Source of the DNA: Diplocarpon mali
Lineage: Eukaryota > Ascomycota > Leotiomycetes > Helotiales > Drepanopezizaceae
Length of the DNA: 64,000 nt
Direction of reading: 5' to 3'
NCBI GenBank assembly: GCA_024741835.1
Contig: JAENRP010000069.1
Location: 113,233 to 177,232 of the forward strand
The notes beneath the pieces are model-generated. The model was not told the DNA's origin. It worked only from the letters and a program-made list of their open reading frames with translations, and did not search any database. Positions 33,389 to 48,249 of the stretch are shown here, in pieces; positions within the stretch are counted from its first letter, which is position 1; each line of letters starts with the position of its first letter. A program made the translations under genes and the position numbers.

Positions 33389-33535
33389 GCTGATTTGGCC
33401 GAGTGGTTAAGGCGATGGTTTTAAGTCTCAAATGATATATCACCATTATCGCAAGATGCGTAAGTATATTTATCCCGAGTCTGTATGCGCCTAATCTAAC
33501 TATTATTCAGGTGCGTTCGAACCGCACAGTCAGCA
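33389..33535 (+). tRNA. tRNA-Leu(UAA) with two introns
   Basis: A class II tRNA. Acceptor arms 33389-33395 (GCTGATT) and 33528-33534 (AGTCAGC) pair over 7 bp (one G-T), with discriminator A at 33535 as expected for leucine. The D stem is GCC/GGC (33398-33400, 33411-33413). Anticodon stem ATGGT (33415-33419) pairs with ACCAT (33442-33446). The anticodon is TAA at 33422-33424, decoding UUA. The ordinary tRNA intron follows position 37 (33426-33440, 15 nt). The variable arm is ATC-GCAA-GAT (33448-33457) and the T arm GTGCG-TTCGAAC-CGCAC (33511-33527). Between variable arm and T stem lies an extra 51-bp segment (33460-33510) that looks like a spliceosomal intron: GTAAGT at the 5' end, CTAATCTAAC branch region, CAG at the 3' end. 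Without both, 81 nt remain. The A-box and B-box promoters are intact. Confidence 0.9.
33460..33510 (+). other. mRNA-type intron-like insert in tRNA gene
   Basis: 51 bases starting GTAAGTATATT and ending CTAATCTAACTATTATTCAG. The 5' site equals the best fungal consensus, and the branch adenosine (CTAAC) lies 12 bases before the terminal CAG. The length matches the 47-60 bp introns of neighbouring protein genes. It sits after tRNA position 48 and directly before the first T-stem base. It shows no bulge-helix-bulge pairing that I can see for the tRNA splicing endonuclease. Confidence 0.8.
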
Positions 33536-33544
33536 AGGAGCGTC

Positions 33545-33550
33545 TTTTTT
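33545..33550 (+). terminator. Pol III terminator
   Basis: A run of six T, 9 bases after the tRNA discriminator base. This is the expected spacing and strength for RNA polymerase III termination of the tRNA-Leu gene and supports it being a live transcription unit. Confidence 0.8.
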
Positions 33551-44362: not shown

Positions 44363-46536
44363 ACCTTGGAGGCTCCTCGTAGGGCATAAAAAACGGGTTT
44401 GGCCAAAGGATACAAATTCCTCTCTTGTTTTCTGCTCCTTGGCTGGGGCGCGCACGAGGGGTTTTCCCATAAGCTTCTCGACCGCCGATAATTGGGTTTG
44501 GTCAATGGAAAGGTAAACAAAATTCCCTTCTTGAACGTCGATCCAATTTAGTATACCTCCAAAATCTAAGAAGAATCTGTGCGCGCTGCCGACACACCCG
44601 AACCCGCATACGCTATCTAAGCCGACATGCCTCAATCTAGTCATGCGCTTATACACTTGTACTCCACTCTTGTTTTACTCTGTAATCAAGCTGCCTTATA
44701 GTAGTTCAGACTTTCAACCCCCCCCCTATAATCCGAAAACCCTAGCTCTTCCAACCCTGAACCTCTCGCAATCTTGTGACACTCCCCCTCGCCCGTGACT
44801 AAATGCTGCTACTCCCTTTTTTCCGCAGGCTGTGAAGCCACTTGGTATTAGTAGGGTAGAACGCCGAATAATTCCTACTCGGATATTAATATCGAGCAGA
44901 CTTGAATTTCCTGGGCTTTCAAGGAGGGGTTTTACTTTATATCGGGAAACCTGCGGCTATGTCACAGATGGACCCATTACTACTCCAACTAATAAGTTAA
45001 GATTCAAAGGCATAGACGAAGCAATCTATTTTGTGCTATAATGGTAGCGTGAATAGTACGATACAGCCTATATTTCGGCGTTCGGATGTAAGAAACGCCC
45101 TTGAAATCGTAGTTATCAAATGGATAAAGCCCCCTTGTAATGGAGAAGCCGATCAGCGGATTTTATAGTGGGGTTGAGGAAAAGGAGTAGAAGAGGCTTC
45201 GCGGCTGTCGACTTGGCCAATTTCCATCCGAACATCACAGCAAAGCATATTCAACCTTGCAAACCCGCTCTTATCCCCCTCCCTCTCGGACATGACGCTA
45301 ATGTGGTATCGGACGGGCCTGCGTCGAAGGACCGTAGTCGGTACAGACCCGGATCGCCCGCTCTATTTGCACAACCCCCGCCTCAGGATTCGGTTGTCTG
45401 CGTATCGCGGGTACCTGGTCCAGATCTATCGCGTTGCGCTGTCCGCAAAAAAACCCCCCCCTTCTTCGTCTGCTTTTGGCGCCTTTATTTCTCTACTTAC
45501 GAAAGTTCCTAACATGCGGACGCATATGATGACGAGACGACGCCTGGTGGGGGGGGGGGGAAGGGGGAACAAGCCCCTTTCTACTCACCGGCAAGGCCGT
45601 GTTGTAATGGTCCTCCAGCTCCGTCTTTCTCTATTTCCAGTACGGCGGATGAAAAAACCCGCCGATTACGTGATCCAATAATAACGCTTGAATTCTGAAT
45701 TTGTCGCCGGTGAAACGAACACATGAAAGCATGTTTAATTAGACTTGCCAATGCGCCAGTCGGCAAATACGCCCAGATGGTTTTTGCTAGGCCTTTGACG
45801 AAGTAGCGGGCGTAATCAATGCGTCAATTACAAGGGCGGATTACAGTGGGTCTGCAAGGTTGAAAATATACTTTCATGTGGTGCTTGTTGCGCCTGCGAT
45901 GACGTGCAAAGAACGCACTGACAGTATTAGGGTTTAAAGCTTTCGGCCTGCTTTCTCACTGGCCAGAAATCCTATTCTTACGTGGATCTCGGCCCTGGGT
46001 TCGGTTACCGTACTCGGAATATAAGTGTTTTTAAAATAAAATAAAAAGAGCGAGTCAGACTTGGCACTGGGGCTTCCGCGGAAGTGCGCCGGCACAAGCA
46101 CTGTGCTTGTACTGGGTAGTATGCGTCGAGTTGGCTATGTCGGTTTGAATTTGTCGGCCTAGCAATCTTCGCATTCTGGCTATTCGAATCTGGATTTCGA
46201 CAAGGGAAAATGCTGTCTTAATCTGGGTTCATTTTCCCCAGAACTCATCAGTGGGCTCGCTGATCCAGAAAGATGGACAGTGGATTCTTGCCAACTGTAC
46301 CAAAATACCTGAACAGCCCGGATATAGTTTCCATTGGTCCTGGAACTTATTTTGTCTTTGGGTCTCTTGGCAGGCTCACATTTCAATCCCAACTTCTGAC
46401 CAGCTAACCCGAACATGTAGGAGTCAAGTCGAATCCTCCCAGGAGCGTACAAGTGTATATATATGGGCTCCAGCCGCCTCTTTCTCACTATCGCTCACAT
46501 CGGTTTATCTTCAGACTCATCGCGGAGAGAATCATC
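44363..46536. other. Intergenic region with homopolymer runs
   Basis: No gene was recognised. It contains poly-C/poly-G runs (44718-44728, 45549-45560) and a 102-codon open frame on the minus strand (44348-44656) that I could not assign. The last 150 bases before 46537 are the leader of the peptidase gene. Confidence 0.5.
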
Positions 46537-48249
46537 ATGGCAGCCTCCCTCACCCTCCTCCTCACCCTCGGCCTCGCTTCCGCGAGCTCCTTGACCTGGA
46601 CGCCTTGCGGCGACGGTCTAGACTGCGCAACACTCACCGTGCCCCTGGAGTATGGCGCGTCGTCCTCGGGCGCAAAGTCAGGAGAAGCACAGATAGCTCT
46701 TGCGCGTTATAAAGCCACTTCGCCCAGCTCCGAGCGACTGGGCTCCATGCTCGTCAATCCCGGCGGCCCCGGCGGCGCCGGCGCCACCTTCGTGAAAGCA
46801 GGCGCCGGCGCCGCCATCTCGGCCATCACAGATGGGCGGTACGACATCATCGGCTGGGACCCGCGAGGTGTCGGGCAGTCGACCCCCAAGCTGCAATGTT
46901 TCCCTAATGCCGGTGACGAGATGTATGCTTACGACGTTTTCCCCTCCGGCCCGGACAGCTGGGCGGGCGTGTTCCAGGACCCGGAATACGACGAGAAAGT
47001 CAGGCAGGAGTTCGAGGAATTCGACGTTGCGGCGGCCCTCCTGGCTGAATCATGCGTGGAGCAGGATTCGCCCGCGTTGTTTACATCGTCTGCTGCGTAC
47101 GTGGCGCGGGACATGGCTGCGATAGTGGATGCCGTCGACGGGAAAGACGCGTTGTTGAATTACTGGGGCTTTTCGTACGGCACTATCTTCCTTGCGGAGT
47201 TCGTGCAGGAATTCCCCGGACGGATCGGCCGTGTCGTCGCGGACGGCGTCGTCGACCCGGAGGCCAACGCCCTCACCTACGCGAGCCAGCTGGCCAACGA
47301 CCAGGTCTCCGTCCGGGACGCGCTCGACGACTTCTTCTCCATGTGCGAACAGGCCGGCACGCTTTGCCCGCTGTCCGAACCTCCCGCCGGCGTAGTCGCC
47401 AGCATGGCCACGCGCTTCGACAAGCTGTTGAGTTCCCTGTACACCGAAGCTGTCATCGCTTATGACCTCCCAATTGATTCTGAGATTCTCATCCGCGTCG
47501 TCTGGTCCTACCTACGCGTCCCCGCCTTCTGGCCTCGGCTTTCCATGGCCATCAACCAGCTCGAAGCCGGCAAGAGACCTAAGGTCCTCATCTCGATGAT
47601 CGCCGACCAATTCGCCGACGAGCCTAAAGATCCGCAAGGGCCCGCTCGCGGCCTGTTTATAGAATTCCCGCTCACGTGCATCGACAATGCGCCCTCCAGC
47701 CACATCACCCTCGAAGAGATTATCCAGCTGACCAAATCCATCAGTATCGAGCAGCAGACGCCCCTGCTCACCGCGGGGATCACGCCCATCGCTTTCTGCA
47801 GCCACTTCCCCGACAGGCGGCCCCTTTTGCGCGCGGCGGGCGTGTCGCGGATGGGCGCCGCAGACGCCGTGCTCTCGGAAGCCAAGAAGACTATCTTGAT
47901 CGTCAACCCCCAGCACGACTCCACGACGCCCTTGAAGTCGGCGCGCAAGCTGCGATCGCTGCTCCCGAACTCTTCGCGGCTGGCAGTTCGCGGCGGCGCC
48001 GGCCACACCACGCCCGTGCTCGCTTCGCTGTCTCTGACCGAGACGGTGCGCAACTTCTTCGTCACGGCTGAGCTGCCGAAGGCTGACGAGACCTACCATG
48101 CCATCGATCAGTTAATCTTTGTGCCCGGGGAGTACACGGATGAGAACCCTCTGGCGCCGGCGACCTACAACGGGACGTATACTGAGTCGCAGACCAAGCT
48201 TCTGCATGCTAACTACAACCTGACCAAAGCCTTTCTCGCTATTGCCTAA
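46537..48249 (+). CDS. Secreted S33 alpha/beta-hydrolase peptidase (TAP-like)
   Basis: Likely an extracellular exopeptidase of the tripeptidyl-aminopeptidase-like group in MEROPS family S33. It is intronless, 570 residues. Residues 1 to about 18 are a signal peptide (MAASLTLLLTLGLASASS). The oxyanion region SMLVNPGGPGGAGATFV and DIIGWDPRGVGQS are textbook S33. The nucleophile is S213 in YWGFSYGT, the acid D461 in VNPQHDSTTP and the base H490 in RGGAGHTTPVL. The C-terminal part with these last two residues corresponds to the TAP-like domain (PF08386). C-terminal N-x-T sites (NGT, NLT) fit secretion. The frame is open upstream to 46453 without changing the call, but the ATG at 46537 directly starts the signal peptide. 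The gene is visibly more GC-rich than its surroundings. The natural substrate is unknown. Confidence 0.93.
   Translation: MAASLTLLLTLGLASASSLTWTPCGDGLDCATLTVPLEYGASSSGAKSGEAQIALARYKATSPSSERLGSMLVNPGGPGGAGATFVKAGAGAAISAITDGRYDIIGWDPRGVGQSTPKLQCFPNAGDEMYAYDVFPSGPDSWAGVFQDPEYDEKVRQEFEEFDVAAALLAESCVEQDSPALFTSSAAYVARDMAAIVDAVDGKDALLNYWGFSYGTIFLAEFVQEFPGRIGRVVADGVVDPEANALTYASQLANDQVSVRDALDDFFSMCEQAGTLCPLSEPPAGVVASMATRFDKLLSSLYTEAVIAYDLPIDSEILIRVVWSYLRVPAFWPRLSMAINQLEAGKRPKVLISMIADQFADEPKDPQGPARGLFIEFPLTCIDNAPSSHITLEEIIQLTKSISIEQQTPLLTAGITPIAFCSHFPDRRPLLRAAGVSRMGAADAVLSEAKKTILIVNPQHDSTTPLKSARKLRSLLPNSSRLAVRGGAGHTTPVLASLSLTETVRNFFVTAELPKADETYHAIDQLIFVPGEYTDENPLAPATYNGTYTESQTKLLHANYNLTKAFLAIA

What the first reader, a model, noticed from the sequence alone, without database searches (positions are those of the whole stretch)
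33389..33535. tRNA-Leu(UAA) gene carries an apparent spliceosomal intron in addition to its normal tRNA intron
Seen: a complete class II tRNA is interrupted twice. The first gap (33426-33440) is at the canonical 37/38 site. The second (33460-33510, 51 bp) lies exactly between variable arm (ATC-GCAA-GAT-GC) and T stem (GTGCG). It has GTAAGT, CTAATCTAAC and a terminal CAG, and matches the length of nearby mRNA introns. Known: nuclear tRNA introns are normally removed by the tRNA endonuclease at 37/38. mRNA-type introns are known in a few other small RNA genes, such as U6 snRNA in some fungi; I know of no established nuclear tRNA case. Inference: either the spliceosome acts on a Pol III pre-tRNA, the tRNA comes through a Pol II route, or the gene is newly disabled. 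Perfect T arm, acceptor pairing, A/B boxes and T6 terminator argue against old decay.
Basis: partly seen in the sequence, partly recalled or inferred. Interest (0 to 1): 0.92.

Follow-up and report, generated by a model that had tools for sequence, protein, structure and literature searches.

The report
Spliceosomal introns inside fungal tRNA genes
In the genome of a leaf-blotch fungus, at least twenty tRNA genes, including the only gene found for one leucine tRNA, are cut by a short intron of the kind that normally interrupts messenger RNA genes, which suggests that its cells need the mRNA splicing machine to make tRNA.

Summary
It is not alone. The genome (likely Diplocarpon coronariae, Helotiales) holds at least 20 tRNA genes, of 13 isoacceptors, with such an insert in the D arm, variable region, T stem or T loop. 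All 20 are GT-AG. Of the 19 undecayed ones, 19 have GTNNG and YAG, 18 have CTRAY 9-14 nt before the end, and lengths are 47-65 nt, like most mRNA introns read in the window. The 37/38 introns look different; BHB motifs are not enriched. In 8 of 11 genes compared, another locus gives the exact junction. In a B-box sample, 14 of 55 tRNA genes had one. No uninterrupted gene was found for eight isoacceptors. Best reading: U2-type introns in functional tRNA genes, removed by the spliceosome from (probably Pol III) precursors that also need the tRNA endonuclease. RNA evidence is missing. Precedent: U6 and U3 introns. Ten paper searches listed no tRNA case.

The parts
33389..33425 (+). tRNA-Leu(UAA) exon 1: acceptor 5' strand, D arm, anticodon arm to G37 (anticodon TAA 33422-33424)
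33396..33406 (+). A box (TGGCCGAGTGG), intact in this gene
   Evidence: sequence; consensus recalled
33426..33440 (+). canonical 37/38 tRNA intron, 15 nt, not GT-AG
33441..33459 (+). exon 2: C38, anticodon 3' strand, long variable arm (ATC-GCAA-GAT-GC)
33460..33510 (+). spliceosome-type intron, 51 nt
33460..33465 (+). 5' splice site GTAAGT
33496..33500 (+). branch site CTAAC (branch A 33499); a second candidate, CTAAT, lies at 33491-33495
33508..33510 (+). 3' splice site CAG
33511..33535 (+). exon 3: T arm, acceptor 3' strand, discriminator A
33514..33524 (+). B box (CGTTCGAACCG), intact in this gene
   Evidence: box limits recalled
33545..33550 (+). T6 run, Pol III-type terminator, 10 nt downstream of the tRNA

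Best explanation
The 51-nt insert is a U2-type spliceosomal intron in a working nuclear tRNA-Leu(UAA) gene, and this gene belongs to a set of at least 20 tRNA genes in this Helotiales genome that have gained such introns. The precursor, most likely a Pol III transcript, is spliced twice by unrelated machines: the spliceosome removes the GT-AG intron, and the tRNA splicing endonuclease and ligase remove the 37/38 intron. Because the tRNA endonuclease is thought to measure from a folded tRNA body (PMC4090602, passages), and the GT-AG intron breaks that body (D arm, T arm or the junction beside it), spliceosomal removal probably comes first and in the nucleus. Shown: presence, exact junctions in 8 genes, splice signals, and that no uninterrupted gene turned up for eight isoacceptors. 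Inferred: splicing, its order, the polymerase.
For: 20 of 20 inserts are GT-AG; of the 19 in undecayed genes 19 have G at +5, 16 T at +6, 19 YAG, and 18 a CTRAY in the tested zone 5-20 nt before the end (nearest one 9-14 nt; 7.7% expected in shuffled introns), lengths 47-65, median 50. Six mRNA introns read in the window: 47, 49, 52, 55 nt with GTATGT/GTATGA/GTACGA/GTAAGT and CTRAY, and two longer ones, 151 nt and 112 nt (the border of the 112-nt one is doubtful, it would end AAG). Removing the insert gives an ARAGORN tRNA in 19 of 20 genes, 18 with the right anticodon; the exception is a decayed Tyr copy. Uncut, 5 of 20 are called, 2 with the right anticodon (introns to 60 nt; 7 and 3 with introns to 300 nt). 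In 8 of 11 genes compared, a locus without an intron at that place matches the spliced junction exactly over 13-30 nt, including the two elongator-Met genes, which are interrupted at different places (46/47 and 55/56) and serve as each other's empty site, and three Gly-GCC genes. Paralogues that share an intron site differ in intron sequence but keep the signals (Gly C53/C71, Tyr C36/C55, His C9/C203). The one decayed copy (Tyr C52) has lost the branch A, has an 80-nt insert and a broken T stem. No uninterrupted Leu-UAA, Tyr or elongator-Met gene turned up; UUA codons are used (8 of 2246 codons). No intron holds TTTT (0 of 19, 3.2 expected, P about 0.02), as a Pol III unit requires; 18 of 20 genes have TTTT within 45 nt downstream.
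Against: No RNA data could be examined. The internal promoter is split in 11 of 19 undecayed genes (A box in 8, B box in 3; positions, box limits recalled), which should harm TFIIIC binding, and upstream TATA-like motifs do not compensate: 8 of 20 interrupted genes against 36 of 53 uninterrupted ones. The gene census is incomplete (one search scored 63 of 2443 candidates and missed this very gene), so uninterrupted copies may exist unseen; Glu-UUC, Leu-CAG, Gly-UCC and Gln-CUG do have an uninterrupted gene, and for Lys-UUU there is an uninterrupted gene of mitochondrial look in a nuclear-type contig (L026). For three of 11 genes compared (both Gln, Gly-CCC) no informative junction match was found. 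ARAGORN alone does not fix junctions. No related genome could be compared.
Confidence: 0.85

Rival explanations
1. The interrupted genes are dead or dying copies and unseen intact genes supply the cell.
For: The census is incomplete; one Tyr copy (C52) is clearly decaying; four isoacceptors have an uninterrupted nuclear gene and Lys-UUU has one of mitochondrial look. An uninterrupted His gene with its T run more than 35 nt away would have escaped the B-box searches.
Against: B-box pattern searches that do not look at the D arm found only interrupted genes for Gly-GCC, Gly-CCC, Leu-UAG, Leu-UAA and Val-CAC; BLAST-type searches with joined Tyr and Met exons found only interrupted Tyr and elongator-Met genes. 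Acceptor stems pair 7 of 7 in the 12 interrupted genes scanned for it; Gly-UCC has two mismatches, shared with its uninterrupted sister. Introns keep splice signals, which dead genes would lose, as Tyr C52 did.
Confidence: 0.06
2. The inserts are ectopic tRNA introns cut by the tRNA splicing endonuclease at bulge-helix-bulge motifs, as in archaea, Cyanidioschyzon merolae and nucleomorphs.
For: Ectopic tRNA introns at D- and T-arm sites, several per gene, are known there (passages read in PMC4090602 and PMC3978253).
Against: The 4-bp central helix at the junctions is met in 1 of 19 (0.45 expected), relaxed 4 of 19 (3.2 expected). GT-AG, branch site and near-uniform length are not explained; the 37/38 introns of the genome are GT-AG in 2 of 38 with seven shifts allowed, about chance.
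Confidence: 0.04
3. The introns are spliceosomal, but the interrupted genes are read by RNA polymerase II as part of longer transcripts, and the tRNA is then cut out by RNase P and Z.
For: Split A or B boxes in 11 of 19 genes; the spliceosome is coupled to Pol II (recalled).
Against: TTTT within 45 nt downstream in 18 of 20 interrupted genes, like 49 of 53 uninterrupted ones; no TTTT inside introns; a Pol III transcript with an mRNA-type intron is known, U6 (PMC5832005, passages; Pol III origin in the abstract of PMC10484740).
Confidence: 0.12
4. Chance, misassembly or contamination.
For: Draft assembly of 676 contigs.
Against: Twenty loci on 19 contigs; three window proteins searched have fungal best hits, one 99% to D. 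coronariae, one 92% to D. rosae and one 87% to Cadophora malorum; log10 P about -44.
Confidence: 0.01

Closest known systems
mRNA-type introns in fungal U6 snRNA and U3 snoRNA genes
   Same: Introns removed by the pre-mRNA splicing machinery from a small structured RNA; U6 is a Pol III transcript. PMC5832005 (2017; start of abstract and passages seen) says U3 and U6 are so far the only small structured RNAs known to be often interrupted by an intron.
   Different: Here the hosts are tRNA genes, of 13 isoacceptors, which have internal promoters and a second, endonuclease-type intron.
Eukaryotic canonical tRNA introns (37/38, TSEN and ligase)
   Same: Interrupt nuclear tRNA genes; these very genes carry one too.
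   Different: Position (8/9 to 55/56, never 37/38), length 47-65 nt against 9-49 nt (36 of 38 at most 35 nt), GT-AG and branch site.
Ectopic BHB introns of archaea, Cyanidioschyzon merolae and nucleomorphs
   Same: Introns in D and T arms, several per gene, in many tRNA genes; A and B boxes split in C. merolae (passages in PMC3978253, PMC4090602).
   Different: No BHB enrichment here; splice signals are those of mRNA introns.
Ordinary U2-type introns of filamentous ascomycetes
   Same: Donor, branch, acceptor and length match those of four of six introns read in window genes.
   Different: Host RNA does not code for protein and is probably made by Pol III.

Membership tests
U2-type spliceosomal intron | GT(A/G)NGT-like donor and YAG acceptor | tested here: met
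   19 of 19 undecayed: GTNNG and YAG; purine at +3 in 17, T at +6 in 16 of 19
U2-type spliceosomal intron | branch site CTRAY near the 3' end | tested here: met
   18 of 19, 7.7% expected per shuffled intron; the 19th (Met C27) has TTGAC
U2-type spliceosomal intron | length range of the genome's short mRNA introns | tested here: met
   47-65 nt against 47, 49, 52, 55 nt for four of six mRNA introns read in the window; the other two are 112 (border doubtful) and 151 nt
U2-type spliceosomal intron | removed by the spliceosome through a lariat | not testable with these tools
   no RNA data
functional tRNA gene | cloverleaf after removal of the insert | tested here: met
   ARAGORN 19 of 20; exception is the decayed Tyr copy
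functional tRNA gene | intact A and B boxes | tested here: inconclusive
   met for Leu-UAA; split in 11 of 19 undecayed genes (positions, box limits recalled)
functional tRNA gene | T-run terminator | tested here: met
   18 of 20 within 45 nt; both His genes have one further downstream
canonical eukaryotic tRNA intron | position 37/38 | tested here: not met
   all 20 inserts lie elsewhere
BHB (archaeal-type) tRNA intron | bulge-helix-bulge at the junctions | tested here: not met
   strict 1 of 19, relaxed 4 of 19, as in shuffles
group I or II intron | ribozyme core of some 200 nt or more (size recalled) | tested here: not met
   inserts are 47-80 nt; no Rfam match other than tRNA in the window

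The most novel reading that the evidence does not exclude
In this fungal lineage the spliceosome has become an obligatory tRNA-maturation machine: a quarter or so of nuclear tRNA genes, including the only genes for some isoacceptors, carry U2-type introns gained independently many times, each precursor is spliced by two unrelated machines in a set order, and Pol III reads genes whose internal promoters are split by introns. Loss of spliceosome function would then stop translation through missing tRNAs as well as missing mRNAs.
Probability: 0.65. Interest if true: 0.97.

Novelty: new variant of a known kind. Interest (0 to 1): 0.93.

Why it matters
Nuclear tRNA introns are held to be the business of the tRNA endonuclease alone. 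Spliceosomal introns in tRNA genes would be a new class of tRNA intron, would show that the spliceosome handles Pol III transcripts other than U6 routinely, and would link mRNA splicing to the tRNA supply. They also give a clean natural system for intron gain: the exon sequence is fixed almost to the base, so gain sites are known closely, and paralogues serve as empty sites. Split A and B boxes ask how TFIIIC reads these genes. Practically, standard annotation can miss such genes: of the 18 interrupted genes outside the window that were scanned, 2 reached Rfam's tRNA threshold (Gly-UCC was not scanned).

Tried and rejected
Rejected: BHB introns; decay; one-off oddity. The idea that upstream TATA motifs replace split A boxes is not supported (8 of 20 against 36 of 53). 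ARAGORN as proof of the exact junction was rejected after the sliding-deletion control, and paralogue junctions were used instead. The A-box pattern search for Asp/His/Gly gave 9 hits: three already known Gln and Glu genes and six that are no tRNA by eye, perhaps because A boxes are split. A scan of viral contigs for one interrupted Gly gene found nothing. No related fungal genome is held, so lineage age is unknown. Paper searches; none of the titles and abstract starts listed shows a spliceosomal intron in a nuclear tRNA gene, but lists were cut and most subscription papers and preprints are not in that library.

Gene counts: the B-box searches gave hits from which I fetched 32 stretches; the other hits were tRNA genes already in hand or were set aside by eye from the printed 3' ends without fetching (for example C450 and C518). 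The 55 tRNA genes are 28 (9 interrupted), 7 (3), 1 (1), 13 (0) and 6 (1); one uninterrupted one (C40, L048) is a partial match. Dropped before counts: B-box-like hits downstream of the His and Ala genes; L050 and L053 (no ARAGORN call, 65); L134 (no tRNA found). L115 is labelled Tyr by ARAGORN; by its sequence I count it as Asn.

Full report
What is there. The 51-nt insert separates variable arm and T stem, starts GTAAGT, has CTAAC with its branch A 11 nt before the end, and ends CAG. Taking it out restores a class II tRNA-Leu whose variable arm has the length and layout of tRNA-Leu(AAG) of the same genome.

Where it is. A protein of the window (46453-48249) is 99% identical to one of Diplocarpon coronariae (Helotiales), a name that I recall as the present one of Marssonina coronaria, the apple blotch fungus. 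The assembly has 49.4 Mb in 676 contigs. The draft genome paper for M. coronaria strain NL1 reports 136 tRNA genes by tRNAscan-SE and says nothing of odd tRNA introns in the passages I saw (PMC7864672).

It is the only Leu(UAA) gene found. The 171-bp gene region, a D-arm plus anticodon pattern with up to 3 mismatches (three hits, one Leu-UAA), a gapped pattern (30 hits, of which I judged only this one a tRNA from the printed letters) and a B-box pattern give no other. UUA is used: 8 of 2246 codons in five window exons or frames, and only a UAA anticodon can read it (recalled).

It is not alone. Among 49 tRNA matches two more had such an insert, elongator Met C234 and Tyr C36. Searches with their joined exons showed a second Met gene (C27) and two more Tyr genes (C55, C52). 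B-box searches then gave Leu-CAG, Gly-CCC, Gln-CUG x2, Gly-GCC x3, Glu-UUC, Leu-UAG and, through a neighbouring hit, His C9, Val-CAC and Lys-UUU, likewise His C203 and Gly-UCC. That makes 20 genes and 13 isoacceptors on 19 contigs. In the B-box sample, which does not look at the D arm or variable region (but misses genes interrupted in the B box or without TTTT nearby), 14 of 55 tRNA genes are interrupted (with 14, 34, 44, 53). No uninterrupted gene was found for Leu-UAA, Leu-UAG, Tyr, His, elongator Met, Gly-GCC, Gly-CCC and Val-CAC; the census is not complete. For Lys-UUU an uninterrupted gene of mitochondrial look lies in a stretch of 56% G+C (L026).

Positions (exon nucleotides before the insert): 8 (Gly-GCC C60), 9 (Gly-CCC), 12 (Glu, His x2, Gly-UCC), 13 (Gly-GCC x2), 18-21 (Val, Leu-CAG, Leu-UAG, Gln x2, Lys), then in tRNA numbering, set by hand, 46/47 (Met C234), 48/49 (Leu-UAA), 52/53 (Tyr x3), 55/56 (Met C27). 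Each of the 19 spliced forms that ARAGORN calls also has an intron in the anticodon loop.

Signals. All 20 are GT-AG. In the 19 undecayed genes G at +5 is found in 19, A at +3 in 15, T at +6 in 16, Y at -3 in 19; CTRAY in the zone 5-20 nt before the end in 18 (nearest 9-14 nt; shuffle rate 7.7%); lengths 47-65, median 50. Of six introns that I read in three of the window's protein genes, by comparison with homologues or by frame, four have 47, 49, 52 and 55 nt and the same signals; two are longer, 151 nt and 112 nt, the latter with a doubtful border that ends AAG. By contrast the 38 anticodon-loop introns that ARAGORN reports in uninterrupted genes have 9-49 nt, 36 of them at most 35, and 2 of 38 are GT-AG with seven shifts allowed, near chance (some ARAGORN anticodons there are wrong, so its borders may be off by a few bases).

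Exactness and selection. For 8 of 11 genes compared, a locus without an intron at that place has the spliced junction as an exact 13-30 nt match (no informative match for both Gln genes and Gly-CCC). The two Met genes have introns at different places and agree across both junctions, so each is the other's empty site. The three Gly-GCC genes have the same 5' exon sequence after joining though one intron sits at 8/9 and two at 13/14. The two Gln genes give the same joined D arm from introns one base apart. Introns at a shared site have diverged (34 of 58, 40 of 71 and 32 of 56 aligned columns identical) but keep donor, branch and acceptor. The Tyr copy at C52 is the informative failure: branch A changed to C, insert of 80 nt, A53 opposite C61, and ARAGORN does not call it after joining.

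Controls against my reading. ARAGORN called a tRNA with the right anticodon for displaced deletions in 19 of 20 genes, mostly within several bases and by over 30 bases in Leu-UAA and Met C234, so it supports the tRNA but not the exact border. The A box is split in 8 and the B box in 3 of 19 undecayed genes; TATA-like motifs upstream are rarer in interrupted genes (8 of 20) than in uninterrupted ones (36 of 53). Four isoacceptors (Glu-UUC, Leu-CAG, Gly-UCC, Gln-CUG) have an uninterrupted nuclear gene too. The BHB test, a control for the main rival, shows no signal.

Mechanism. The inserts have what the major spliceosome needs and nothing that the tRNA endonuclease is known to use. Downstream T runs (18 of 20 within 45 nt) and lack of TTTT in the introns (0 of 19; 3.2 expected) point to Pol III. 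The known precedent is U6, a Pol III RNA with an mRNA-type intron in some fungi (PMC5832005). How TFIIIC reads a gene with a split A or B box is open. Both His genes have a B-box-like sequence downstream of the tRNA, which recalls the downstream B box of yeast U6 (recalled).

Literature. Reviews of ectopic tRNA introns describe archaea, C. merolae and nucleomorphs, with BHB motifs as the rule in archaea and C. merolae, and one says that insertions in D or T arms of eukaryotic tRNA genes are mostly taken for pseudogenes (PMC4090602, PMC3978253; passages). Ten searches listed no nuclear tRNA gene with a spliceosomal intron. Subscription journals and preprints are largely outside that library.

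Verdict. Observation confirmed, interpretation supported and widened. What is missing is RNA.

Noticed in passing
G000:C9:137564 and G000:C203:54018 (L113, L127): Both His-GUG tRNA genes have an extra B-box-like sequence about 30 nt downstream of the tRNA, before the next T run; Ala genes at C5 and C75 have a similar one.
   Followed up: partly
G000 whole genome: I recognised no Asp or Phe tRNA gene among the matches of my searches; they may be interrupted within the searched motifs, or simply unscored.
   Followed up: no
L130 and L131 (Gly-UCC, C2 and C11): Both Gly-UCC genes, interrupted or not, share two U-U mismatches in the acceptor stem (positions 3-70 and 4-69).
   Followed up: no
L085 (Tyr, C52:149416, minus strand): A Tyr gene in which branch site, T stem and intron length have decayed together, a natural negative control.
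   Followed up: partly
L026 (G000:C198:42979-43049, minus strand): An uninterrupted tRNA-Lys(UUU) with an unusual T loop (GGTTCCAATCC), mitochondrial in look, in a stretch of 56% G+C; possibly a mitochondrial insert in the nuclear genome.
   Followed up: partly
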